Of a DNA stretch of 10,650 nt, positions 1 to 10,650 are shown one piece after another. Origin of the DNA: Bacteroidota bacterium (GTDB taxonomy: Bacteria; Bacteroidota; Ignavibacteria; Ignavibacteriales; Melioribacteraceae); contig JAMCSN010000389.1 of assembly GCA_023381535.1 (NCBI GenBank), forward strand, positions 1 to 10,650. The letters run 5' to 3'. Every line of letters starts with the position of its first letter. Position 1 is the first letter of the stretch. Under the pieces are notes generated by a model, which was given only the letters and a program-made list of their open reading frames with translations, did not search any database and had not been told where the DNA came from. Both the position numbers and the translations under genes were made by a program.

Positions 1-613
1 CTGCTTCTTCCGAAAAACTCTTTTCACTTAGGAAAAGATTTTGAGATGAAAGAGAAAGAGAAAGGAAATCGAAAGGTTGGTATGTAAATCCGATATCCCC
101 GCGCCAGAAATTATCGTTTGTAACCGTTGTTTTTGTCGAGATATAATTTGCCTTATCGGTAAAGATCGGCTCGGGCTGGTCTTCCTTAAATTGTTGTTCA
201 AAATATCTTAACGAAAATCCGGCAGAAAATTTCCCCAAAAATCTATAAGAGTATCCGAACCCGAATATTTCCGCAAAATGAATTTTCGTATTTAATGAAG
301 AATTGAATTTCAAAGAATCGCTCAAAAGAAGTTTAATTCCGCTGTTAACTATAAAGTCCTGAACATAACCGGGCGTGTACCTAAGATAAAAATAGTTTGC
401 GTCAATTCTTTTTGAAAGAGAAAGCATAAAAATGTTCCCGGAAATTTGGTTTTCTCTAACGCCGGAAAATGAAAGAGCCAATTCCCAATCTTTGCTCATA
501 CTAAAATTGCCGGCGTTCGATTCCAAAGAATTAAGCCGGTACATAGAGTTTATGGATTGAGAATTGCCAAAAAAATCCAATGATTGCTGTCCGTATAAGG
601 CAGAACCACACAT
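1..613 (-). CDS. Partial outer-membrane beta-barrel-like protein (C-terminus outside window)
   Basis: About 204 codons are visible before the left window edge. The protein has alternating polar/aromatic strands typical of outer-membrane barrels, such as FGFGYSYRFLGKFSAGFSLRYF followed by a tail rich in LSLSLSSQ-like strands, and many Asn/Ser/Tyr/Phe residues. I do not recognise a named family. It lies just downstream of two lipoprotein genes and probably belongs to their operon. The start is uncertain. The ATG at 613 is preceded by AGGAG 11 nt upstream, but it gives almost no signal peptide (MCGSALYGQQ). The frame stays open upstream to a stop at 704-706, and a TTG at 691 would add a basic segment and a hydrophobic stretch (IELILGVWLIMCGSALYG), which makes a convincing Sec signal but overlaps the preceding gene by 47 nt. 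A TTG at 619 is also possible. The barrel assignment is inferred from composition. Confidence 0.6.
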   Translation of the reverse strand, partial: MCGSALYGQQSLDFFGNSQSINSMYRLNSLESNAGNFSMSKDWELALSFSGVRENQISGNIFMLSLSKRIDANYFYLRYTPGYVQDFIVNSGIKLLLSDSLKFNSSLNTKIHFAEIFGFGYSYRFLGKFSAGFSLRYFEQQFKEDQPEPIFTDKANYISTKTTVTNDNFWRGDIGFTYQPFDFLSLSLSSQNLFLSEKSFSEEA

Positions 614-644
614 GATCAACCAAACTCCTAAAATTAGTTCGATC

Positions 645-1577
645 TTACCGCGGAATATCGACTTTAATGTTATGAATACTTTGCGATGCAATATAACTGT
701 CTTTTAATACTGCGTTATAAGGAATTCCTTTTATTAATCTTTTAATTAAGGTTACAACTAAAAATTTGCTTTGACTAAACTGAATCTTTTCGAGAATTGA
801 CCACGGCACTTTCAAAGCGTTTGTATGAGCCGCCTTGAAAATAAAGAGCGGGTTGGCATCGTTGGATGTTAAATTTATATTGCCGATAATAATATCAACA
901 GAATCACTGGCACTGCCGTTCCATGTAACTTCCATACTTAGATTATTTGTTGAAACTCTTCCTTGAAGATTAACCTGTCCAATAACTTCAGCCGGCGTTG
1001 GCAAGTTGAATTGGTATGTAGGATTTGAGCCGTCGTTAATTCTTACATTAATACTTGAACTGTAAGGGAATTGATTGTTCATCCCGCCGTGCATGCCGTG
1101 CCCCATTCCACTGGATACAACATATCTGAAACCGAGCGATGTATCTATTGAAGTATGAGTTTGATCCATCATCTTCATGCGATTTGATTCTGTCTGTGCC
1201 GATATATTGTTGAAAAGAACGGAAGCAACTTGTTTTGATTTATACCCAACCACTGTGTTGTTGGGACCCATTACGGGTTTAGTTTTGTCATTGAAGACTG
1301 CGAAGTAATAAGCGCCGTCGGTAAAACTTCCGTAATTCGAGTTATGTATTCCGCTCACATTGACGATTGTACTTTTGTCGATAAATGGCTCAACTATGCC
1401 GGTTGAATCGTACCCATTGCTGTAAACATAAGTGGACGGCTTTTCGGGAACAACTCCAACGTTAATGTTTTCCGGAGTGGATGTATTATCGGTAAACTCA
1501 ACCGGCGAAGGATCGCCACAAGAAACAAGAAAAACAAGCGGGAGTAACAATATCAAGTATTTTATTTTCTTCTTCAT
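645..1577 (-). CDS. Secreted lipoprotein with a Met/His/Gly-rich patch, function unknown
   Basis: This 310-residue protein starts with a basic, hydrophobic signal peptide ending in a lipobox (LVSC, Cys20), so it should be lipid-anchored in the envelope. After a Pro/Thr/Asn-rich linker (about 21-50) the body is beta-rich and of no family I can name. Residues 157-170 form a short Met/His/Gly patch (GMGHGMHGGMNNQF), and more Met and His lie at 133-141 (MKMMDQTHT). Such composition could bind soft metals such as copper, but that is only an inference. It follows the larger Met-rich lipoprotein after 48 nt and precedes the partial beta-barrel gene, so the three probably share one transcript from the promoter near 2770. 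No clear Shine-Dalgarno is seen before the ATG at 1577; a GC-rich hairpin sits where one would be expected. Confidence 0.85.
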   Translation of the reverse strand: MKKKIKYLILLLPLVFLVSCGDPSPVEFTDNTSTPENINVGVVPEKPSTYVYSNGYDSTGIVEPFIDKSTIVNVSGIHNSNYGSFTDGAYYFAVFNDKTKPVMGPNNTVVGYKSKQVASVLFNNISAQTESNRMKMMDQTHTSIDTSLGFRYVVSSGMGHGMHGGMNNQFPYSSSINVRINDGSNPTYQFNLPTPAEVIGQVNLQGRVSTNNLSMEVTWNGSASDSVDIIIGNINLTSNDANPLFIFKAAHTNALKVPWSILEKIQFSQSKFLVVTLIKRLIKGIPYNAVLKDSYIASQSIHNIKVDIPR

Positions 1578-1625: not shown

Positions 1626-2717
1626 TTATTTTACCGCCATTGGAATTCCCCAGCTTTTTTCTTCAACCGGGGCGGTATCATCATAAACAGATTGTTTCGG
1701 CATAGCGTTCACAACTGCGTGCATAAATCCTCCTCCTACAGAAGGAGCGTTCCATTGGAGTTCATAAATTTTATTGTAAGAACTTCCATTTTGCGTAGAG
1801 GAAATTAACTTAAATCTCAGTTTATTTCTATTGCCAAAAGTATTCATATTGGAACCATTTCCCATAGAACCGTTTCCATGCATTCCGTTGCCCATCATAC
1901 CGCCGCCCATCATGCCGTTGCCGCTCATACCGTTTCCCATAGAGCCGCTTCCAACTCCGCCCATCATATAACCGTTTGCCATACCTTGTATCATCATACC
2001 ATGTGTTAAAGTTAAAATATCTTCATCGCTATAAGCGCTTACAAGTTCTACACGTACAGTTGCCGAACTTTGTTTTCCGTAAAGCGGAAATTGATGATGA
2101 GCGCCTTGAAGCATAGTTAAAAAGAAATCGTTAGGAGATGTTGTTTCATAAACTTTTCCATCGGCAAATGTAACCGTTACTTTCTTGATATCTATGTTGG
2201 TTGTATTTGACCCGCCTGAGACAAGAGAAACAGCGATTACGCGCCAATCGTTTAATTGGTTGCCTGTGTCTCCAACTTTTGCATATTTAATAACACGGGT
2301 AACAATTGTTGAATAAGGTTTGCGAATTAATGTATCTACTCTTGCCGGGTTACCGGTAATTGATTTTTGATAAGACGCCGCAATCAAAAGTTCGCCTTCA
2401 AACTTTTGCGTTAAGTAACCATAAGCGGTATCGGCTTGCTGTTGAAAATCCAACTGGCTGTCAACCATCTTTAAGTTTTGCCCGATTTTAACCGGGTAAA
2501 TTTCCTTTGCCAGTCCGCCAACAATATTCATAACGGCGGTTTCATTGTAATTTGGTTCGAATGACTGAACAGCCGGGTCGTTAGCCGTGATTTTCTGAAG
2601 AGCAGAGTTTAGCGACTGTGAACCGGATTCGACAGGGTTGGTTCTATCGCAGCCGTACAAACCGAAGATAAACATTATTAACGCTGCTAATGAGAACATG
2701 ATTTTTCGTTTTTGCAT
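1626..2717 (-). CDS. Met/Gly/Asn-rich lipoprotein, function unknown
   Basis: The 363-residue product starts with MQKRKIMFSLAALIMFIFG and a lipobox (LYGC, Cys23), so it is a lipoprotein. I chose the ATG at 2717 because GGAG lies 7 nt upstream and the signal peptide begins there. A longer in-frame start at 2801 would run through the conserved promoter element and bury the signal peptide. Residues about 24-235 are a beta-rich domain of no family I recognise. Residues about 239-292 are a low-complexity stretch made of repeated GNGM, GGM and MMG units with one HGM and one MHG, rich in Met, Gly and Asn. The last 70 residues return to ordinary sequence. Met-rich tracts of this kind occur in copper- and silver-handling proteins, so metal binding is possible but unproven. 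It is the first gene of a likely three-gene operon with a sigma-54-like promoter directly upstream. Confidence 0.85.
   Translation of the reverse strand: MQKRKIMFSLAALIMFIFGLYGCDRTNPVESGSQSLNSALQKITANDPAVQSFEPNYNETAVMNIVGGLAKEIYPVKIGQNLKMVDSQLDFQQQADTAYGYLTQKFEGELLIAASYQKSITGNPARVDTLIRKPYSTIVTRVIKYAKVGDTGNQLNDWRVIAVSLVSGGSNTTNIDIKKVTVTFADGKVYETTSPNDFFLTMLQGAHHQFPLYGKQSSATVRVELVSAYSDEDILTLTHGMMIQGMANGYMMGGVGSGSMGNGMSGNGMMGGGMMGNGMHGNGSMGNGSNMNTFGNRNKLRFKLISSTQNGSSYNKIYELQWNAPSVGGGFMHAVVNAMPKQSVYDDTAPVEEKSWGIPMAVK
1842..2003 (-). repeat. Imperfect short repeats coding Met/Gly/Asn-rich tract
   Basis: Inside the lipoprotein gene, short units encoding GNGM, GGGM, GSMGNG and MMG recur many times with a near 12-15 nt rhythm (for example, CCGTTGCCCATCAT and CCGCCGCCCATCAT on the plus strand). 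The degeneracy of the copies suggests an old expansion by slippage with selection on amino-acid composition. Confidence 0.7.
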
Positions 2718-2756: not shown

Positions 2757-2774
2757 ACTCATAATGGATGCCAA
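2757..2774 (-). promoter_or_regulatory. Sigma-54-like promoter P1 for the lipoprotein operon
   Basis: On the minus strand TTTTGGCA is followed by 6 nt and ATGAGT. The GG sits where the -24 GG of a sigma-54 promoter would be, with 10 nt to the position of the -12 GC, which here reads GA. If GG is at -24, transcription starts near 2747, giving a 30-nt leader before the ATG at 2717. The same element, with the same 6-nt gap and the same 54-nt distance from GG to ATG, lies upstream of the gene starting at 6927. The -12 deviation keeps the sigma-54 call tentative, but the shared layout is seen directly. Confidence 0.6.
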
Positions 2775-2821
2775 AAGAAAAACTTTAGATTCTGCGCCCA
2801 AAATGGAAATTGTAAAAATTT

Positions 2822-2870
2822 GAATTGCCTGGAACTTGAAAAGAATTGCCTGAAGTGAACTATACAGGCA
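2822..2870 (-). promoter_or_regulatory. Upstream activator sites of P1 (direct repeats, 21-bp period, plus inverted copy)
   Basis: On the plus strand GAATTGCCTG occurs twice, at 2822-2831 and 2843-2852, exactly 21 bp or two helical turns apart. An inverted CAGGCA lies at 2865-2870, inside the last codons of the sigma-54 activator gene. The pair is 57 and 78 bp from the TGCCAA core of P1, that is at roughly -80 to -105, a usual place for enhancer-binding protein sites. The same arrangement recurs at 7033-7080. The binder is inferred to be the activator encoded next door. Confidence 0.65.
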
Positions 2871-5307
2871 GTTTTCTTAATAAATTCTTGATCGTTTCGT
2901 CAAGGTAAGGATGAAATTTTGCCGGTAAGTTTTTGTACTTTGAAGCGAACACATGCTTAATTTTTGCGAAATCGTTTTCTTTGAGCTTTACCAAATCCTT
3001 TTGCAGATTTTCGATGTAAGTTTGAGTTTTTAATTTTAGCCGGTTCAAAGATTCGGCACTGTCAGTACGGGCAAGTTCAATAACAGTTTTATCAAAGCCG
3101 AAAGAATTTGCAACGTAAATTTTGAAGAATAAACCGCGAAGATTTTCCGAAACGATCGTTCGATTAATATTGCCGAGTTCCTTTGCCGTTTCATTGATTG
3201 ACGAATGCGAAAAAGATTTATTGCGCAGTGATTCCAAAATCAAATCTTCCATATCGGAACGGTTGACCATGCGGTATTCTTCCGAAAGATCGTTTAACTG
3301 AATAATTTTTCTGCCTTCCGACTTAGAAAAGATTACGGCACGTTTAATTACGGATTCCAGTTCACGTACGTTTCCTCGCCAATCATTTTTTATAAGACTG
3401 TCTAAGACGGCTTTAGAGATTTGCATTTCGGAATCTTCCATACGCACGAAATGATATGCAAGTAATTCGACATCTTCTTTCCTATCGCGCAGAGGCGGCA
3501 ATTCTAATTTCATAACATTTAAGCGGTAGTAAAGGTCTTCCCGGAATAATTTCTTATTAACAAGCTCGTCCAATTTTTTATTGGTGGCAGTAACAATGCG
3601 AACGTCAACATGTTTTATTTCTGCGGCGCCGACTTTTTGAACCTCGCCGAATTGAATTACACGTAAAAGTTTAGCCTGGAAGTTCTCGGTAGTTTCGCCT
3701 ATTTCATCAAGAAAAATTGTCCCGCCGTCGGCAATTTCAAATCTTCCTTTGCGGTCTGCAACGGCATTGGTAAAGGCGCCTTTTACGTGACCGAAAAGTT
3801 CGCTTTCAAGAAGCGAGTCCGGCAAAGCAGCGCAGTTGACAGCGACAAAATTTTTACCTTTCCTTTTACTAAGATTATGAATGGCGCGCGCAACAAGTTC
3901 TTTACCGCTTCCGCTCCCGCCCAGAATTAAAGCGGTGGCGTCTGTGCCGGAAATTTTCTTGATCATATTAATGAGACTTTTCATAACCTCGCTGCGAAAG
4001 ATCATCCCTTCAAACAAATTGCTTGTTTCGTCTTCTACATTGACCGGTTCCGGTTCGTTATCGTCTTTCCATTTTTTAAGGCGTGAAATTTCATCTTCGA
4101 GCATAATTATTTTCGAAGTAAGATGGCTCTGGCGGTCATCGGAAATGACGGAAAGTTGTTCCTTTAATTCTGAAAGTTCTTTTTCTTTTGTTGAAAGCGT
4201 GCGTTTTAATATTTCCGATTCGTTGAAGGTATCGCGTAATTTTGTTTTACTTTCTAATAAATTAAAGCTGAATTCTATTAGAAAAAATGCAGCCGCGGGA
4301 AAAATAACCGCAGAATAATTTATCTCAAGAAAGAAAAATGTAAAAAGTAGAAATGATGCAATTACAAAAAAGAGAATGTATATAAGCGCGGCTTGCGTTC
4401 TCGGAAAATCCTTTCTAATTAAAACAATCGCAATCAAAGGCAAAAGGAAGATAATTGCGAGATATGGACTAAGATGAAACTTGAGTGAGCGGTTTGTAAG
4501 TATATTGTCGAGCGCGAAAGCGTGAAGCGCTACACCCGGAAGTTCTTTATCAAATGCAGTTGAGATAGTTTTTGCAATCGTCGGATCGCTGACGCCGACC
4601 AACACAATTTTATTTTTTAGCTTATCAAGACTGCTATCTTTCTCTTCAACTAATCTGAAAAATTCAAGCAAAGAATATTTCTGATAATTCTTCCAGGAGT
4701 TATAGAAATTTATTTTTATACGCTTGTCTATCTGATCTTTATTTGCAAGGGCAGACGAAAATGATTTTTCCGCTTTGCCATTAACCTTTATGGAATTGGG
4801 TATGTAAATTCCGTCATCTGAAATATAATTTAAGTGCCCGCTTTTAAGATTGGGGTTATCCAATTTGGGTTGTGAATAAATTATTGAATCGGCAGCGCCG
4901 TCATTTAGTATCAACGACGAAACAACAACTCTTTCGCTTCGCTTTATTTCCTCATCCAAAAGATCGTTGTAAATAGATTGTGTGGCGGCATTGTTCGACA
5001 GAAGAACCTCCACGCCAATTTTAGCCGCTCCTAAACTTGAGAGTTTGCTAATCAATAAGGCGTAGTAACTTCTTTTAAGAGGCCAGCCGCCGAGTTTTTC
5101 AATATCATTGTCATTGATGTGAATTATTGCTATGGCGGTGTCTAACGATCTTTGTCCCGTTATTTTGGTAAAAGCATTTTCGGTAGTTTTATTGAACGAA
5201 CTAAACGCTCCCAACAGCGAAAGCAAAAACAGAAGCGTTATTGAAGCTAATTCAATAACCTTTTTGTTAGAAAATATCTTTCCGGTTTTATTCATTTTTG
5301 ATTTCAT
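2860..5307 (-). CDS. Membrane-bound CHASE2 sensor / sigma-54 enhancer-binding transcription activator
   Basis: About 815 residues. Layout: one N-terminal membrane helix (about 17-36), a periplasmic CHASE2 sensor domain (about 46-270; IHINDNDIEKLGGWPLKRS near its start, NKIVLVGVSD and PGVALHAFALDNIL near its end), three membrane helices (about 280-348), a coiled coil (about 353-412), then a sigma-54 AAA+ ATPase domain (about 430-665). Seen in the ATPase: Walker A GGSGSGKE (463-470), sigma-54 contact loop GAFTNA (510-515, usual form GAFTGA), Walker B GTIFLDEI, sensor I TATN, arginine-finger region FREDLYYRL and sensor II GNVRELE. A helix-turn-helix-like segment (about 684-727, INETAKELGNINRTIVSENL) and a helical tail follow. 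It should activate sigma-54 RNA polymerase in response to a periplasmic signal; likely targets are the two flanking promoters. CHASE2 is more often joined to kinases, cyclases or GGDEF domains. The start is unsure: ATG 5307, ATG 5295 and TTG 5319 are all in frame and none has a good ribosome site. TAATTTTG at 5317-5324 resembles a Bacteroidota -7 box but would leave almost no leader. Confidence 0.9.
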   Translation of the reverse strand: MKSKMNKTGKIFSNKKVIELASITLLFLLSLLGAFSSFNKTTENAFTKITGQRSLDTAIAIIHINDNDIEKLGGWPLKRSYYALLISKLSSLGAAKIGVEVLLSNNAATQSIYNDLLDEEIKRSERVVVSSLILNDGAADSIIYSQPKLDNPNLKSGHLNYISDDGIYIPNSIKVNGKAEKSFSSALANKDQIDKRIKINFYNSWKNYQKYSLLEFFRLVEEKDSSLDKLKNKIVLVGVSDPTIAKTISTAFDKELPGVALHAFALDNILTNRSLKFHLSPYLAIIFLLPLIAIVLIRKDFPRTQAALIYILFFVIASFLLFTFFFLEINYSAVIFPAAAFFLIEFSFNLLESKTKLRDTFNESEILKRTLSTKEKELSELKEQLSVISDDRQSHLTSKIIMLEDEISRLKKWKDDNEPEPVNVEDETSNLFEGMIFRSEVMKSLINMIKKISGTDATALILGGSGSGKELVARAIHNLSKRKGKNFVAVNCAALPDSLLESELFGHVKGAFTNAVADRKGRFEIADGGTIFLDEIGETTENFQAKLLRVIQFGEVQKVGAAEIKHVDVRIVTATNKKLDELVNKKLFREDLYYRLNVMKLELPPLRDRKEDVELLAYHFVRMEDSEMQISKAVLDSLIKNDWRGNVRELESVIKRAVIFSKSEGRKIIQLNDLSEEYRMVNRSDMEDLILESLRNKSFSHSSINETAKELGNINRTIVSENLRGLFFKIYVANSFGFDKTVIELARTDSAESLNRLKLKTQTYIENLQKDLVKLKENDFAKIKHVFASKYKNLPAKFHPYLDETIKNLLRKLPV

Positions 5308-5343
5308 TAACCGGAACAAAATTAGCGATTTTTAGGGGAATGA

Positions 5344-5380
5344 TAAAAAATAAAAATCCCGGCTTGTCACCGGGATTTTT
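5344..5380 (-). terminator. Bidirectional rho-independent terminator after the T9SS protein gene
   Basis: An 11-bp perfect inverted repeat (AAAAATCCCGG at 5352-5362 and CCGGGATTTTT at 5370-5380) with a 7-nt loop is followed by a T-rich run on both strands. It lies between the end of the secreted-protein gene (5413) and the start of the sigma-54 activator, so the activator probably has its own weak promoter or depends on read-through. Confidence 0.88.
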
Positions 5381-5412
5381 TTATCTAATGACTCATTACT
5401 CAATACTTGATA

Positions 5413-6927
5413 CTATTTGAGCAGCATCATTTTTCTTACCTGGACAAAGTTGCTTGTTTGAAGTTTGTAAAAATAAACTCCGCTTGCAAGCCTGCTTGCA
5501 TCAAAACTAATTTTATAGCTGCCAGCATTCTGAAAACCGTTCATAAGAGTTGTCACTTCGTTGCCAAGAATATCGTAAACTTTCAGACTAACATTTCCGT
5601 TGGAAGAAAGTTTGTAAGAAATTGTTGTTGATGGGTTAAATGGATTAGGATAATTTTGATTAAGAACAAATTCCGTAGGGAGACTTTCAGTTATTTCAAC
5701 AGCGGTTACTGTAGAACCCGACAGGGCGACAAATCCACTCACGGTTGATGAGCTGAAAGAAACGGTATTGTTTTGTGTATTTATTGTTGAGGCAACAGAT
5801 TTCCATGAGTTTGTTTGATCATCCCACAGTTTTGCCTGGATGTTATTTTTATTCATACCGTAGGCATTTAACTGCGCGTCTGTAAAATGGAGCTGAATTT
5901 TGATATTGTTGCCAAAATCCATGTGTCCGCCGCCGTGACCGTTCTCCCACATCATGTTGTTTTCGTTCGGATTGAACATATCAATTTCGTAACCGGCAAA
6001 AATATTTTGTCCTTTGAAGTCCGGCATATTTTCCGGGTAAACTTCAAACATCTGTCCGAAAATTGAATCCGGCAGCGAACCCATCATGTGTCCGCCTTGA
6101 TGCCAGCCGCGCATCATTGTTACCATTGTGCTGTCGTCAAAAGGTGAATGAAACTTTGCCGAATCAGAATTTTGATTGAACCATCCACCGCCGAAATGAG
6201 GATTTAATTTTGTAGAATCTCTCCAGACTTCACCATTTATTTCATATACTATAAACATTGATAAGCCGGAGTTATTTGAAAGCAATCCGCCTTTAACGGT
6301 AATTGTTTTTCCGTCCTGCGGTCTTTGTGCGCCGGATGCAGGTTGATACCAATACGGACCAAAATTCAAAAAGTAATTTGGTTTCCCATCATTATCGGTA
6401 TCAAGGTAAAAATGATTCATCATAAAAGTTGTGTCGACTAAAGTTGTGCCGGTTAGCGTAACGGTTTTTAATGAATCATGATTCCAACCGAAACCATAAC
6501 TTCCGCCGAACATACCGTGTTTACTCCAACCGAACATGTGGTTATTTTTACCCATATTATTCCAATTGGCAAAAAACGGATCCCGCCAGAGAAGGTTATT
6601 GATTTCATAAACTACAACTGATTTGAAATTATACATAGACGACTGGTAAGCGCCGCCGACAATCGTTATTTGATCGCCATTCTGCGGGCGTTTTGCTGCG
6701 GAGCTGTCCGGTTGATACCACGGCGGGCCGAAGTTAAGATGGTAATCCGGGTTCCCATCAAGATTTGTATCGATGAAATATTGTGGAACCGGCATTGATT
6801 GATCAACAATAGCATTACCGGTTAATGTAAGTGTGTCTAATTTATCTGCTCTAAGGTGACTGTTCATCATTTGGGCGAATGATAAAGAAGTCATGAGAAT
6901 GAAGCTAAGTAAAAGTATTTTTTTCAT
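5413..6927 (-). CDS. Secreted T9SS cargo protein, duplicated domain, Met/His/Gly-rich, C-terminal sorting domain
   Basis: 504 residues. An N-terminal Sec signal (MKKILLLSFILMTSLSFAQ) is followed by two copies of a domain of about 84 residues (33-117 and 156-238). Both carry TLTG, a calcium-loop-like acidic stretch (DTNLDGNPD and DTDNDGKPN), LNFGPxWYQP, a GG turn, VYEIN and WRD. Between and after them are segments rich in Met, His, Gly, Trp and Phe, such as HMFGWSKHGMFGG (130-142), GWHQGGHMMG (274-283) and NGHGGGHMDFG (329-339). Residues about 415-504 form a type IX secretion type-A sorting domain, with NQNYPNPFNPSTTISY, VYDILGNEV and SGVYFYKL. It should therefore be exported through the outer membrane by T9SS and anchored or released. 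AAGGTG lies 4 nt before the ATG. It stands alone between a sigma-54-like promoter and a terminator. No enzyme motif is visible; metal or ligand binding is a guess from composition. Confidence 0.9.
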   Translation of the reverse strand: MKKILLLSFILMTSLSFAQMMNSHLRADKLDTLTLTGNAIVDQSMPVPQYFIDTNLDGNPDYHLNFGPPWYQPDSSAAKRPQNGDQITIVGGAYQSSMYNFKSVVVYEINNLLWRDPFFANWNNMGKNNHMFGWSKHGMFGGSYGFGWNHDSLKTVTLTGTTLVDTTFMMNHFYLDTDNDGKPNYFLNFGPYWYQPASGAQRPQDGKTITVKGGLLSNNSGLSMFIVYEINGEVWRDSTKLNPHFGGGWFNQNSDSAKFHSPFDDSTMVTMMRGWHQGGHMMGSLPDSIFGQMFEVYPENMPDFKGQNIFAGYEIDMFNPNENNMMWENGHGGGHMDFGNNIKIQLHFTDAQLNAYGMNKNNIQAKLWDDQTNSWKSVASTINTQNNTVSFSSSTVSGFVALSGSTVTAVEITESLPTEFVLNQNYPNPFNPSTTISYKLSSNGNVSLKVYDILGNEVTTLMNGFQNAGSYKISFDASRLASGVYFYKLQTSNFVQVRKMMLLK

Positions 6928-6966
6928 AATGCACCTTGTGTTATGTTGTTTTAGGATGCTTTATTT

Positions 6967-6984
6967 ACTCATCAATCGTGCCAA
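6967..6984 (-). promoter_or_regulatory. Sigma-54-like promoter P2 for the T9SS protein gene
   Basis: On the minus strand TTTTGGCACG is followed by ATTG and ATGAGT. TTGGCACG is a full match to the sigma-54 -24 box, while the -12 box reads GA in place of GC. The distance from the GG to the ATG at 6927 is 54 nt, as at P1, and predicts a 30-nt leader. The wider element (TCTTTTGGCA-N6-ATGAGT) is shared with P1. Confidence 0.63.
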
Positions 6985-7032
6985 AAGAGAATAGTTGGAT
7001 TCTTTGTAGAAAAACAATTTTGCAGATTACTA

Positions 7033-7080
7033 ACATGCCTGAAATTAGCAGCGACATGCCTGAAGTAATAGTTTCAGTCA
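7033..7080 (-). promoter_or_regulatory. Upstream activator sites of P2 (direct repeats, 21-bp period, plus degenerate inverted copy)
   Basis: ACATGCCTGAA on the plus strand occurs at 7033-7043 and again at 7054-7064, an exact 21-bp period. CAGTCA at 7075-7080 is a one-mismatch inverted half-site at the same offset (18 bp) as the perfect inverted copy at P1. The offsets to the promoter core (57 and 78 bp) are identical to those at P1, which argues that the sites work with the promoter as one unit. Confidence 0.65.
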
Positions 7081-7335
7081 AAAGGGGGACTTACGCTTGA
7101 AAGAACTCGATTGCATTACTTAATCTTCATTTCGGAATTAAATAGAGAGAAAAATCCCGAGCAGACGTTAACATTCCCGTTTATGGCTAAACCGGGGTAG
7201 TGCGACGGCAGTCTGACTTGTGTTTATGAATGCCCTGACATGTGCTCTCGACATCTACAACGCTGGGGTTATCGGCGAGCATTTAAGCCCGGCTCAATAA
7301 ACCAACTAACTAAACAAATTGTGATAACAACTGTT
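7081..7335. other. Intergenic stretch with a GC-enriched, hairpin-prone segment of unknown nature
   Basis: No reading frame here looks like a gene. Bases about 7155-7295 are roughly half G+C by my count, clearly higher than the AT-rich surroundings. They contain a hairpin (CCCGTTTA at 7176-7183 with TAAACCGGG at 7188-7196, one bulge), an outer 5-bp pairing (CAGAC 7162-7166 with GTCTG 7211-7215), and a later TGCTC/GAGCA pairing. The plus strand leads into the strong terminator at 7343-7362, so a small RNA on the plus strand is conceivable. A copy of a dispersed intergenic repeat is another option. Neither can be decided from this sequence. Confidence 0.35.
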
Positions 7336-7385: not shown

Positions 7386-9611
7386 TTATTTCTCTTTGTT
7401 GGTATTGAAGAATTTGAACGACAGATTCAAAATAAAAACAACAAGCACTACTGCACCAATTGCGAAGATCGTATCGCCGAACGCACGAGTCCAACGAAGA
7501 GTGTCCATCAATGGGGTTTGCAGAAACTCCGAACTTCTTGCATACCAGTAGCCGTATTTGACTGAAGCCCATGTTTGCATTAAGCCGACAGGCAGCAAGC
7601 TAAACGTGACCATCGCAAACAACCCGAAGTTGATTGCCCAGAAAGAAAACTTCAACGGTTTTTCATTCCATTCAATATCTGGTCTGATGGCGCGTAAAGT
7701 AAACAGCATCAAACCTATTCCCAGCATACCGTAAACGCCAAACAATGCAGCGTGTCCGTGAACCGGTGTAGTGTTAAGACCTTGCATGTAGTAAAGTGCA
7801 ATCGGCGGATTGATCATAAATCCAAAAAGACCGGCGCCAAGCATATTCCAGAATGCAACTGCAACGAAGAAATATATCGGCCATTTGTATTTCTGAACCC
7901 AATCTTTGGATTTGGAGAGACGGATATTTTCCCAAGCTTCATAACCTACAAAAATAAGAGGCACAACTTCGAGCGCACTGAATACGGAGCCAAGTGCGAG
8001 AGCTATCATAGGTGTTCCGCTGAAATATAAATGATGCAGAGTTCCGATAATTCCTCCGGACAAAAAGATTGTTGAAGCAAGAAGGGTTGCCCGCGCAGTG
8101 GTTTTCAGACTAATCAATTTCAAACGGGCAAAAAGAAATGCTATTACAACGGTCGCAAAAACTTCGAAGAAACCTTCTACCCAAAGATGCACAACCCACC
8201 AGCGCCAATATTCGGCAATGGAAAGATTAGTATGTTTGCCGTACATCAATGCGGCGCCGTAGAACAGAGCAATTGCAACGGTGGAAACCAGAAATAAAGA
8301 AAGAATTTGTTTCTGATCGCTGTTGTTTTTCAATGCCGGCTTGATGGCTCTTACCATTAAGACAAGCCATAAAAGTAATCCGATAAACAGCGCAATCTGA
8401 AAAAATCTTCCGAGATCAATATACTCATAGCCGCTGTGACCAAACAAAAACCAGTTGCTGTCGGACATTTTGTTCATCACGCTTAACCATTCGCCGAACA
8501 TTGAACCGAGAACTACAATCAATAAAGCGCCGAACAAAACATTAACGCCCAATCTTTGGTACTTCGGCTCTACGCCGCTTACTGCGGGACCGATATAAAG
8601 TCCTGATGCAAGCCAAGCGGTGGCGATCCAAAATATTCCAAGTTGATTATGCCATGTTCTTGTAATGCTATAGGGAAGAATTTTGGAAAGAGGGATACCG
8701 TAAAAACCGTTTCCCTCAACTCCGTAATGCGCTGTAATTACACCCATAACTATTTGAAGCAAAAATAGACCGGTGACTACCCAAAAATATTTTATGACTG
8801 CCTTTTGCGAAGGAGTTAAAACCGAGCCGAGTAACGGATCGTTTGTAGGTACGTCGCCATATGGTTTTTCTTTTTCTTGAGAACCGTTGTACCAAATCAT
8901 CCCGCCTATGCCGGCAAGCAGCAGTATTATGCTTACTCCTGTCCAAACTACAGCTTCGCCGGTAGGATTATTGGCGACTAATTCTTCATGAGGCCAATTA
9001 TTGGTGTAGGTGATTTCATCATTCGGACGATTTGTTGATGCTGCCCATGAAGTCCAAAAAAAGAATGCGCTAAGTTTGCGGAGTTTTTCAGGATCGCTGA
9101 GAGAATTTTTTCTTATTGCATAAGCGTCTCTTCCGTTAGAGAAAACATCGCTGAAATATTTTACATTATTCTCAATTGCCTTTTCTCTTACCGGATCGAT
9201 CGTGATAACTTTGCCGGCTTCGTCGTAAGTGTTTCTTCTAAACATTTTTTTGAGACGCGATTTTAGCGCAGCTTGTTCCTCGTTGCCAAGATCGGAATAA
9301 GCGGTTTTGAATTGCGATTGCGACCAATAGTTAAGCACAAACATTGCTTCACGGTGCAGCCAATCCGCCGTCCAATCGGGTGCAACATAACTGCCGTGTC
9401 CCCAAACCGTACCGACTTCCATGCCTCCGAGAGCCTGCCAAATATTTTGTCCCTCTTCGATATCGTTTTTTGAAAAGACCGTTTGACCGTTGGACGTAAC
9501 TACTTTCTCCGGAATCGGAGGCGCCTGCTGATAGATTTTAACCCCTATCCAACCGAGAACGGAAAATGAAACTACAATGACAACCGTAAAAGCTATCCAA
9601 TATTTCTTCAT
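7386..9611 (-). CDS. norZ: Quinol-dependent nitric oxide reductase (qNor)
   Basis: This 741-residue integral membrane enzyme reduces two NO to N2O, taking electrons from the quinol pool in the cytoplasmic membrane. The length fits single-subunit qNor. An N-terminal helix (about 5-26) leads to the extracytoplasmic cytochrome-c-like domain that lacks a haem c motif, with the family signature GQNIWQ (54-59), VWGHGSYVAPDWTADWLHRE (69-88). About a dozen further helices follow (from about 220). Likely ligands seen: His321 (TWHNQLG) and His620 for low-spin haem b, His618 for haem b3, and His475, His526 and His527 with Glu479 (HLWVEGFFEVF, HHLYF, VHGHAALFG) for the non-haem FeB site. All are present, so it should be active. 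It is the last gene of an operon, 38 nt after the ferredoxin, and GGAG lies 7 nt before the ATG. It may serve NO detoxification or partial denitrification; no nitrite or nitrous-oxide reductase gene is in the window. Confidence 0.97.
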   Translation of the reverse strand: MKKYWIAFTVVIVVSFSVLGWIGVKIYQQAPPIPEKVVTSNGQTVFSKNDIEEGQNIWQALGGMEVGTVWGHGSYVAPDWTADWLHREAMFVLNYWSQSQFKTAYSDLGNEEQAALKSRLKKMFRRNTYDEAGKVITIDPVREKAIENNVKYFSDVFSNGRDAYAIRKNSLSDPEKLRKLSAFFFWTSWAASTNRPNDEITYTNNWPHEELVANNPTGEAVVWTGVSIILLLAGIGGMIWYNGSQEKEKPYGDVPTNDPLLGSVLTPSQKAVIKYFWVVTGLFLLQIVMGVITAHYGVEGNGFYGIPLSKILPYSITRTWHNQLGIFWIATAWLASGLYIGPAVSGVEPKYQRLGVNVLFGALLIVVLGSMFGEWLSVMNKMSDSNWFLFGHSGYEYIDLGRFFQIALFIGLLLWLVLMVRAIKPALKNNSDQKQILSLFLVSTVAIALFYGAALMYGKHTNLSIAEYWRWWVVHLWVEGFFEVFATVVIAFLFARLKLISLKTTARATLLASTIFLSGGIIGTLHHLYFSGTPMIALALGSVFSALEVVPLIFVGYEAWENIRLSKSKDWVQKYKWPIYFFVAVAFWNMLGAGLFGFMINPPIALYYMQGLNTTPVHGHAALFGVYGMLGIGLMLFTLRAIRPDIEWNEKPLKFSFWAINFGLFAMVTFSLLPVGLMQTWASVKYGYWYARSSEFLQTPLMDTLRWTRAFGDTIFAIGAVVLVVFILNLSFKFFNTNKEK

Positions 9612-9649
9612 AGATACTCCTTTTATTTATTTAAAAATGGAATTCGTTT

Positions 9650-9874
9650 TTATTTAATGATGCAATTCATTGGACAAATTTCTACACACGGCGGAATTTT
9701 TTTGCGATCTCTGCATTCATCACATTCATACGGATTAATAAAGTAGTGATCAAAGGCTAACGGCTTAATATTTGAACCGGAGAAATCTTCTTCATGAGAA
9801 TAAATAGCATGCTGCGGACACTCGGATGCACATGCACTGCAGTTAATACATTCCGAAGTGATAAAGTATGCCAT
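9650..9874 (-). CDS. 2[4Fe-4S] ferredoxin (YfhL / Allochromatium-type)
   Basis: This 74-residue protein has a first cluster motif CxxCxxCxxxCP (Cys9, 12, 15, 19) and a second, extended motif CxxC-x8-CxxxCP (Cys51, 54, 63, 67), with an extra Cys71. The eight-residue insertion in the second motif is the mark of the Allochromatium/YfhL ferredoxin class, whose clusters have low and unequal potentials. It should be a cytoplasmic electron carrier. The ATG lies 4 nt after the stop of the upstream membrane-protein gene, and the ribosome site (AAGGAGAAAGG) is inside the end of that gene, so translation is probably coupled. Its link to NorZ is not obvious, since qNor takes electrons from quinol; it may serve repair of NO-damaged iron-sulphur centres or another partner. 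Confidence 0.92.
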   Translation of the reverse strand: MAYFITSECINCSACASECPQHAIYSHEEDFSGSNIKPLAFDHYFINPYECDECRDRKKIPPCVEICPMNCIIK

Positions 9875-9878
9875 GGCA

Positions 9879-10337
9879 TTAAAACCTTTCTCCTTGCGCT
9901 TCTCTTACGTGACTTCCAACCGATCTGATTCTTCCCCACATTGAGATGAAGAAAATTATTATTCCCAGAACTTGACCGCATGCCGAAATTGTAAGAATGA
10001 ATTTCGAAAGATCGTTGGAATTTAAAAACGAAGAGGCGATTTGAGAAGCGAACCGTATCACAGTCGATACGGTCATGATATAGTAAGCAACTAGTACTGC
10101 TGCCGGTTTGTAAAGTTTGTCATTTTTTTCTGCACGCGGAAAAAACCATAACGCAACGCCCATTATCATCATCATAACAGACCCAACAAGAATAATGTGT
10201 GTGTGGGCAGATACGAGATCCGGGTGAGGCCAAATATTAAAATAATTCCGTGCGATCAGCATGTAAAGACCCGTCAATATTCCCAATACGAGGAAGATTA
10301 TACTGGTCTTGATAAAATACCTTACCGTTGAAAACAT
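9879..10337 (-). CDS. Four-helix membrane protein resembling a heme-copper oxidase subunit I fragment
   Basis: The 152-residue protein has four predicted membrane helices (about 9-29, 44-66, 79-97 and 112-133). The stretch PHPDLVSAHTHIILVG (37-52), followed by MMMIMGVALWFFPR, resembles the helix of cbb3-type/NO-reductase catalytic subunits that holds a haem-ligand histidine; His38, His45 and His47 are candidates for haem b binding. It is far too short to be an oxidase and lacks the catalytic-site helices, so it is a stand-alone member of the small HCO-I-like family that is often seen beside nitrogen-oxide genes. It is the first gene of the operon with the ferredoxin and norZ, with AAGGA 7 nt before the ATG. 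A role in haem or electron handling for NorZ is inferred from position only. Confidence 0.85.
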   Translation of the reverse strand: MFSTVRYFIKTSIIFLVLGILTGLYMLIARNYFNIWPHPDLVSAHTHIILVGSVMMMIMGVALWFFPRAEKNDKLYKPAAVLVAYYIMTVSTVIRFASQIASSFLNSNDLSKFILTISACGQVLGIIIFFISMWGRIRSVGSHVREAQGERF

Positions 10338-10361
10338 AAATGTTCCTTTGCAACAGTGTAA

Positions 10362-10367
10362 ATATTA
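10362..10367 (-). promoter_or_regulatory. Probable -10 hexamer of the nor operon
   Basis: TAATAT on the minus strand would put the transcription start near 10355, about 18 nt before the ATG at 10337. The centre of the Fnr-type palindrome then lies close to -41, the classic class II activator position. Confidence 0.45.
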
Positions 10368-10388
10368 AAATGTCAAGGGTAACTTCCT

Positions 10389-10402
10389 TTGACTTAAGTC
10401 AT
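10389..10402. promoter_or_regulatory. Fnr/NnrR-type operator
   Basis: TTGAC-TTAA-GTCAT is a near-perfect Fnr-class site (TTGAY-N4-RTCAA type) with a perfect 12-bp palindromic core (TGACTTAAGTCA). It lies 52 bp upstream of the first gene of the nor operon and just downstream of a gene for an Fnr-type regulator. Activation under low oxygen or NO is inferred. Confidence 0.72.
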
Positions 10403-10456
10403 GATATATCGTTTTGGCAGTTTCAATGTTGTACAGAAAAAATCTGTAGAATAAAC

Positions 10457-10650
10457 TCATTCAGCTAATTCTTTCAGACGTTTGAAGTTCTTAACAAAAA
10501 CTGTTTTACCGGAGGTGCGAATGATTTGATCGGCATGCAGTTTCTTTAACGAACGCGAGAGGGTCTCGGTAATTGTTCCGAGATACGAGGCAATATTTCT
10601 TTTCGAAACGGAAAGTTTTACAAACGGTTCGGTTAACTTTTCCGTTTTCG
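10457..10650 (-). CDS. Crp/Fnr-family transcription regulator, partial (C-terminal DNA-binding domain)
   Basis: Only the last 63 residues are in the window; the N-terminal sensor domain is beyond the right edge. They form a typical Crp-family winged helix-turn-helix: VSKRNIASYLGTITETLSRS followed by LKKLHADQIIRTSGKTVFV and a short tail ending in ELAE. The recognition helix carries E-T-x-S-R, as in Fnr, whose Glu, Ser and Arg read TTGA half-sites, rather than the Crp pattern. That fits the TTGAC/GTCAT operator found 55 bp after its stop codon, in front of the nor operon. It is probably an oxygen- or NO-responsive activator of norZ (Fnr, Dnr or NnrR type); which signal it senses cannot be told without the missing part. 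Confidence 0.85.
   Translation of the reverse strand, partial: KTEKLTEPFVKLSVSKRNIASYLGTITETLSRSLKKLHADQIIRTSGKTVFVKNFKRLKELAE

What the first reader, a model, noticed from the sequence alone, without database searches (positions are those of the whole stretch)
2757..7080. Two promoters with base-for-base identical architecture flank the gene for a sigma-54 activator
P1 (2757-2870) and P2 (6967-7080) share: ATGAGT and TTGGCA separated by 6 nt; 54 nt from the GG to the start codon; two TGCCTG repeats at 57 and 78 bp from the promoter core; and an inverted copy 18 bp further out. Downstream are a Met-rich lipoprotein operon and a Met/His-rich T9SS protein; between them is the only enhancer-binding protein gene in the window. 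Identical spacing at both sites is strong evidence for one shared regulator. It could reflect promoter duplication, since some of the DNA between the elements also matches without gaps (for example GATTCT), or selection on geometry.
Basis: partly seen in the sequence, partly recalled or inferred. Interest (0 to 1): 0.85.

Follow-up and report, generated by a model that had tools for sequence, protein, structure and literature searches.

The report
Conserved sigma-54 regulon beside its activator
Two gene switches in this bacterium share the same DNA layout, and the layout recurs in related bacteria in front of cell-surface and secreted protein genes, often right beside the gene for a membrane-bound activator, so it looks like a genuine gene-control circuit.

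Summary
P1 and P2 share an inverted half-site (one mismatch in P2), CAGGCA-N15-CAGGCA, a 52-nt gap and TTGGCA-N6-ATGAGT. Relatives decide the matter. In 21 of 22 loci where lipoprotein LP1 follows the activator gene, a CAGGCA pair lies after that gene; the 22nd has CATGCA. Of 48 LP1 upstream regions, 39 carry a half-site pair plus GGCA under a relaxed pattern, against 0.04 in shuffles. The composite has 42 hits in 25 of 45 activator-positive genomes (reversed control 0) and background in 346 others (18 against 14). Half-sites drift to CATGCA while geometry stays. Best reading: activating sequence plus sigma-54 promoter of a small envelope/secretion regulon of Ignavibacteria, driven by the CHASE2 enhancer-binding protein encoded between P1 and P2. 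Corrections: ATGAGT and the leader length are not conserved; Met-richness is confined to some lineages; recent duplication is not needed. Binding and sigma-54 dependence are inferred.

The parts
2865..2870 (-). P1 upstream activating sequence, inverted half-site TGCCTG; overlaps the last codons of the activator gene
   Evidence: inverted half-site with at most 1 mismatch in 25 of 43 sites against 2.0 in shuffles; best match 17-20 nt from the first CAGGCA in 38 of 43 (counting matches with up to 2 mismatches)
2847..2852 (-). P1 distal CAGGCA half-site
2826..2831 (-). P1 proximal CAGGCA half-site, spacer exactly 15
2757..2774 (-). P1 sigma-54-like core, TTGGCA (-24) with GG-N10-GA (-12); 52 nt from the proximal half-site
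1626..2717 (-). LP1 lipoprotein-like gene (363 aa), first gene of the P1 operon; Met-rich loop of low model confidence (246-296 in the 366-residue reading frame 1626-2726)
645..1577 (-). LP2 lipoprotein-like gene (310 aa)
   Evidence: lipoprotein by eye
2..691 (-). start of the ~650-aa exported protein gene (labelled OMP in my scripts by eye); the complete relative in L125 has a Transglut_core domain; cut by the window end
2860..5319 (-). enhancer-binding protein, 819 aa: CHASE2, membrane helices, coiled coil, sigma-54 AAA+ domain (GAFTNA loop), helical C-terminal DNA-binding-like region
7075..7080 (-). P2 inverted half-site TGACTG (one mismatch)
7057..7062 (-). P2 distal CAGGCA half-site
7036..7041 (-). 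P2 proximal CAGGCA half-site
6967..6984 (-). P2 sigma-54-like core TTGGCACG-N4-ATGAGT
5413..6927 (-). Met/His-rich type IX secretion cargo (504 aa, Por_Secre_tail), target of P2
   Evidence: similar proteins behind a site in L125, L162, L126, L214, L218

Best explanation
P1 and P2 are sigma-54-type promoters of one small regulon. Each has an upstream activating sequence of three half-sites (inverted TGCCTG, then CAGGCA-N15-CAGGCA, 21 bp or two helical turns apart) that would span about -125 to -80 from the expected start site. The C-terminal region of the membrane-bound CHASE2 enhancer-binding protein encoded between P1 and P2 binds it; on an extracytoplasmic signal its AAA+ domain opens the sigma-54 closed complex. 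Targets are exported proteins: the LP1-LP2-transglutaminase-domain operon (P1) and a type IX secretion cargo (P2). Shown: the composite site, its conservation and co-occurrence with the activator, the domain make-up, rpoN in relatives. Inferred: DNA binding by this protein, sigma-54 dependence, signal sensing, the position of the start site.
For: Site in both promoters. CAGGCA pair (one with a mismatch) 3-502 bp after the activator gene in 21 of 22 syntenic loci, CATGCA in the 22nd. 39 of 48 LP1 upstream regions carry a pair plus GGCA against 0.04 in shuffles and 0 on the other strand; spacers are 15 or 16 in 33 of 35 CA[GT]GCA pairs. Genome-wide 42 hits in 25 of 45 activator-positive genomes, reversed control 0; 18 hits in 16 of 346 others, control 14. 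Gap ranges 11-41 and 73-103 give 2 and 3 hits in the 45 genomes (one of the 3 is a known site with a second TGGCA). Half-site drift with constant geometry. Transglutaminase-domain gene in 43 of 45 activator-positive genomes and, at a cut of 1e-110 chosen afterwards, 1 of 346 others. rpoN in 45 of 45; in 12 of the 45 the activator lies within 5 kb of rpoN (coordinates). Of 22 hits outside the activator loci, 19 were fetched (the other 3 look coding); each of the 19 precedes a gene in the right direction, and 16 of these genes look exported by eye.
Against: No binding or expression data. The -12 base is rarely the canonical C (7 of 43) and the GAFTGA loop reads GAFTNA in the window. 20 of the 46 loci have the activator next to other genes, and 20 of 45 activator-positive genomes lack the exact CAGGCA composite; 7 of those 20 have the CATGCA form (the eighth genome with it, G181, also has two CAGGCA hits that look coding). 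No HTH residue cleanly separates CAGGCA from CATGCA activators. Genomes carry many other possible activators (15-42 first-look candidates in the activator-positive genomes). Nine of 48 LP1 regions have no site under the relaxed pattern. Related genomes are not independent, so the statistics are too optimistic.
Confidence: 0.8

Rival explanations
1. The site is a sigma-54 upstream activating sequence, but a different enhancer-binding protein of the genome binds it, and the CHASE2 protein is a neighbour with another job.
For: Genomes hold many candidate activators; in 20 of 46 loci the CHASE2 activator sits beside other genes; no HTH residue tracks the half-site change.
Against: Site and activator co-occur across genomes; the site lies within 502 bp of the activator gene in 21 loci and overlaps its 3' end in the window; four of five distant cassettes looked at keep activator and operon together at 34-42% identity.
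Confidence: 0.13
2. The repeats are the operator of an unrelated regulator and the TTGGCA element is incidental; transcription uses another sigma factor.
For: The -12 element is weak (C in 7 of 43).
Against: The element follows at gaps of 50-53 or 61-67 in 41 of 42 sites, although a 31-nt range was open to the genome search, and GG-N10-G is kept in 36 of 43; rpoN in 45 of 45.
Confidence: 0.05
3. P2 is a recent copy of P1 (or the reverse) and the shared geometry is only descent.
Against: Both sites exist in L125 and L126, whose activators are 76% and 57% identical to the window's, so the pair is old; the window's P1 matches P2 of L125 equally well (27 of 55), and P1 of the window and of L125 match at only 20 of 55 outside the motifs; promoters of other targets share the geometry.
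Confidence: 0.03
4. A NorR-like nitric oxide regulon, because norB lies next to P2.
For: A norB gene and, by eye, the end of a Crp/Fnr-type regulator lie upstream in the window; NorR is among the best NCBIfam hits.
Against: The NorR model scores 317.9 against a cut-off of 476 and matches only residues 398-683; the sensor is CHASE2; P1 and P2 do not face norB; no norB-like neighbour is seen upstream of the cassette in L126 and L162, the two close relatives whose contigs reach that far (by eye).
Confidence: 0.02

Closest known systems
Sigma-54 promoters with upstream activating sequences bound by enhancer-binding proteins (NtrC, NifA, NorR, PspF type)
   Same: -24 GG element, AAA+ Sigma54_activat domain, repeated half-sites roughly 100 bp upstream (review PMC7057263, passages seen, gives about 100-150 bp)
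   Different: three half-sites with 15-nt direct spacing, -12 base mostly A, CHASE2 sensor and membrane helices in the same chain as the activator
CHASE2 histidine kinase operon of Burkholderia with a LysM/FecR protein (PMC5192318, passages seen)
   Same: CHASE2 extracytoplasmic sensor encoded with an exported partner protein
   Different: a two-component system with a CreB-type regulator there; here the CHASE2 domain is fused to a sigma-54 activator, and Pfam finds no FecR domain in the fourth operon protein
Sigma-54 as controller of the bacterial exterior (PMC3162934, abstract and two passages seen)
   Same: envelope and exported proteins as targets
   Different: its text has no hit for CHASE or Chlorobi

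Membership tests
sigma-54-dependent promoter | -24 element TGGCA | tested here: met
   present in P1 and P2 and in 41 of 43 sites (the genome-wide sites were partly selected for it)
sigma-54-dependent promoter | -12 element GC ten bases after GG | tested here: inconclusive
   G in 36 of 43, following C only in 7 of 43; the usual consensus is TGC (PMC12316311, passages), which also cites E. coli promoters that deviate
sigma-54-dependent promoter | rpoN in the genome | tested here: inconclusive
   45 of 45 activator-positive relatives; the window's own genome is not held
sigma-54-dependent promoter | transcription lost without sigma-54 and activator | not testable with these tools
   needs an experiment
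bacterial enhancer-binding protein | Sigma54_activat AAA+ domain | tested here: met
   PF00158 2.1e-66; profile hits to NtrC1, FleQ and PspF chains
bacterial enhancer-binding protein | GAFTGA loop | tested here: inconclusive
   GAFTNA in the window; of 46 sequences GAFTGA 18, GAFTNA 14, other 13, gap 1
bacterial enhancer-binding protein | C-terminal helix-turn-helix | tested here: inconclusive
   conserved helical region from residue 687 in alignment and model; no Pfam HTH match
upstream activating sequence | repeated half-sites upstream of the core, kept in relatives | tested here: met
   estimated -125 to -80 in the window, a little nearer than the 100-150 bp of the review
NorR | curated NorR score cut-off | tested here: not met
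   317.9 against 476

The most novel reading that the evidence does not exclude
The CHASE2 protein is a one-component, membrane-embedded enhancer-binding protein that reads the state of the cell envelope, possibly through the exported proteins of its own operon, and binds DNA while anchored in the membrane: a sigma-54 counterpart of anti-sigma cell-surface signalling, ancient in Ignavibacteria, whose binding site changes sequence while its geometry is held.
Probability: 0.35. Interest if true: 0.78.

Novelty: new variant of a known kind. Interest (0 to 1): 0.62.

Why it matters
It gives a bacterial group with few regulatory data a defined regulon (activator, site, targets) that can be tested in a cultured relative, and it would couple an extracytoplasmic sensor directly to sigma-54 and to type IX secretion cargo. 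In eight searches of the held library (most lists were capped at 8-15 rows, only one search was complete) none of the listed titles or abstract openings describes such a regulator. The drifting half-sites on a fixed frame offer a natural series for studying how an activator and its site change together.

Tried and rejected
Rejected: recent promoter duplication; a NorR-type NO regulon; Met-richness as the theme of the regulon (the Met-rich stretch is a low-confidence loop present only in some LP1 proteins); strict helical phasing of the gap (two classes, 50-53 and 61-67, about 12-13 bp apart rather than 10.5; best single period near 13); a recognition-helix residue explaining CAGGCA versus CATGCA (the best-separating columns lie mostly in the sensor, and 676 and 754 near the C-terminus are confounded with kinship).

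Controls and choices to know: the activator cut of 1e-150 and the cut of 1e-110 for the transglutaminase-domain protein (read off, where 97 of 391 pass 1e-40) are mine. At 1e-100 more distant activators appear (8 in a phylum sample of 296). The class sample is 391 of a larger group. Of 42 activator-positive hits, 20 lie at the activator loci, 19 were fetched and 3 that look coding (two in G181, one in G002) were not. One of the 19, L208, is itself next to the end of an activator gene that the assembly splits from L157. L141's pair had no promoter-like follow-up and was dropped; L156 was left out of the gap statistics because its TGGTA match is wrong (CGGCA at 52); L131 has TGGTA. In one search nine of 48 LP1 regions had no site: L131, L205, L267, L268, L270, L271, L272, L274, L275. 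L235 is listed there with a nearer CGGCA; its TGGCA gap is 64. Export, lipoprotein, enolase, hslVU and Crp/Fnr labels are by eye.

Full report
Observation. Both promoters lie on the minus strand and read inverted half-site, CAGGCA-N15-CAGGCA, 52 nt, TTGGCA-N6-ATGAGT. The pair with spacer 15 did not occur in 300 Markov shuffles of the window. The activator gene between them encodes CHASE2 plus Sigma54_activat. Its model shows N-terminal helices, the CHASE2 region, helices 284-300, 307-329 and a long helix 336-391, the AAA+ domain and a helical C-terminal region (mean pLDDT 81.8, pTM 0.45, so the relative placement of domains is not reliable). That the window comes from Ignavibacteria is an inference from its relatives.

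Relatives. No genome is held for the window. A search of 391 genomes of the class, centred on a genome reached through L001 (a contig titled Melioribacter roseus), found 45 with an activator at E <= 1e-150. With up to 8 kb around each, 22 of 46 loci including the window have the order activator, LP1, LP2, the 650-aa protein, and a fourth exported protein where the contig reaches; 20 have other neighbours, two have the operon on the other strand (L160, L163) and two are cut (L157, L162). In 21 of the 22 a CAGGCA pair (one with a mismatch) lies 3-502 bp after the activator gene, followed by TGGCA in 19, TGGTA in L131 and CGGCA in L156; the 22nd, L137, has CATGCA-N15-CATGCA. A second site lies before the Met/His-rich secreted protein in L125, L162 and L126, as P2 does in the window.

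Genome-wide. The pattern CAGGCA-N15/16-CAGGCA-N42..72-TGGCA has 42 hits in 25 of 45 activator-positive genomes with no hit for the reversed pattern, and 18 hits in 16 of 346 other genomes with 14 for the reversed pattern. Neighbouring gap ranges of the same width give 2 and 3 hits in the 45 genomes. Among 42 sites the gap is 50-53 in 19, 61-67 in 22 and 42 in one; none falls in 54-60. The inverted half-site matches TGCCTG with at most one mismatch in 25 of 43 sites against 2.0 in shuffles.

Targets. Of the 42 hits, 20 lie at activator loci, 3 look coding and were not fetched, and 19 were fetched. Their first genes are: LP1 in 3 (L200, L204, L208, the last beside the end of a split activator gene); large proteins with a sorting-tail-like end in 7 (L201, L202, L203, L205, L209, L213, L215; Pfam CarboxypepD_reg and Por_Secre_tail checked for L201 only); proteins like the window's P2 target in 2 (L214, Por_Secre_tail checked, and L218); WXXGXW proteins in 2 (L207, checked, and L212); a 95-97-aa membrane-like protein ahead of an enolase-like gene in 3 (L206, L210, L211); other small or cut exported-looking proteins in 2 (L216, L217). 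Export was judged by eye.

Drift of the site. CATGCA-N15/16-CATGCA-N42..72-TGGCA is found in 8 of 45 activator-positive genomes, reversed control 0; 7 of the 8 lie before LP1 and the eighth at a contig end. Other LP1 promoters show CAGGTA, CACGCA, CATGCG or one CAGGCA and one CATGCA. Under a relaxed pattern 39 of 48 LP1 upstream regions carry the pair and a following GGCA, against 0.04 of 48 in shuffles and 0 on the other strand. Geometry is thus kept while sequence moves, as expected of a bound, functional site.

Co-occurrence. The 650-aa transglutaminase-domain protein at E <= 1e-110 is present in 43 of 45 activator-positive genomes and 1 of 346 others. Of five more distant cassettes looked at (L267-L271), four have an activator 34-42% identical upstream. 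rpoN is present in 45 of 45, and in 12 the activator lies on the same contig within 5 kb of it (coordinates).

Mechanism. The most likely course is that the activator, held in the inner membrane, binds the half-sites through its C-terminal region, forms its hexamer on a signal, and remodels the sigma-54 closed complex about 100 bp away. The cassette's products look exported, so feedback from the envelope is plausible but untested.

Literature. The review PMC7057263 (passages) puts activating sequences about 100-150 bp upstream, close to what is seen here. PMC12316311 (passages) gives the usual consensus and has no hit for Ignavi. PMC5192318 (passages) describes a CHASE2 kinase encoded with a LysM/FecR protein. 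PMC3162934 (abstract and two passages) links sigma-54 with the cell exterior. The rows listed by searches 38-41, 55, 56, 80 and 81 include no paper on a CHASE2 enhancer-binding protein; most of these lists were capped.

Noticed in passing
L139, L141, L142, L144-L148, L153-L155, L158 (activator loci of a second lineage): In these 12 of 45 genomes the activator gene lies within 5 kb of rpoN, after what looks by eye like hslV-hslU. In several, the downstream gene has a [TC]GGCA-N-TG promoter-like element without the CAGGCA pair, so this lineage may use a second kind of site.
   Followed up: partly
L126, 8 kb around the activator: By eye, the Met/His-rich target sits beside a P-type ATPase with a metal-binding-like start and near a multicopper-oxidase-like secreted protein, which hints at copper for the window's lineage.
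   Followed up: no
window 5352-5382: A G+C-rich hairpin with T-runs on both sides separates the secreted-protein gene from the activator gene, so the activator is probably not transcribed from P2.
   Followed up: no
window 7085-7330: A 250-bp stretch between P2 and norB has no assigned gene, no RNA family over its gathering score and no unusual folding energy.
   Followed up: yes
window 7386-10648: norB (Pfam NorB_cytochrome_c-like and COX1), a ferredoxin-like 74-aa protein, a haem-copper-oxidase-like 152-aa protein and, by eye, the end of a Crp/Fnr-type regulator: apparently a nitric oxide reduction cluster.
   Followed up: partly
activator residues around 514-519 and relatives: The sigma-54 contact loop is GAFTNA here; orthologs vary between GAFTGA, GAFTNA, GSFTNA, GSFTGA and GAFTDA, a surprising freedom for this motif.
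   Followed up: partly
L206, L210, L211: The composite site also precedes a ~95-aa membrane-like protein followed by an enolase-like gene (by eye).
   Followed up: no
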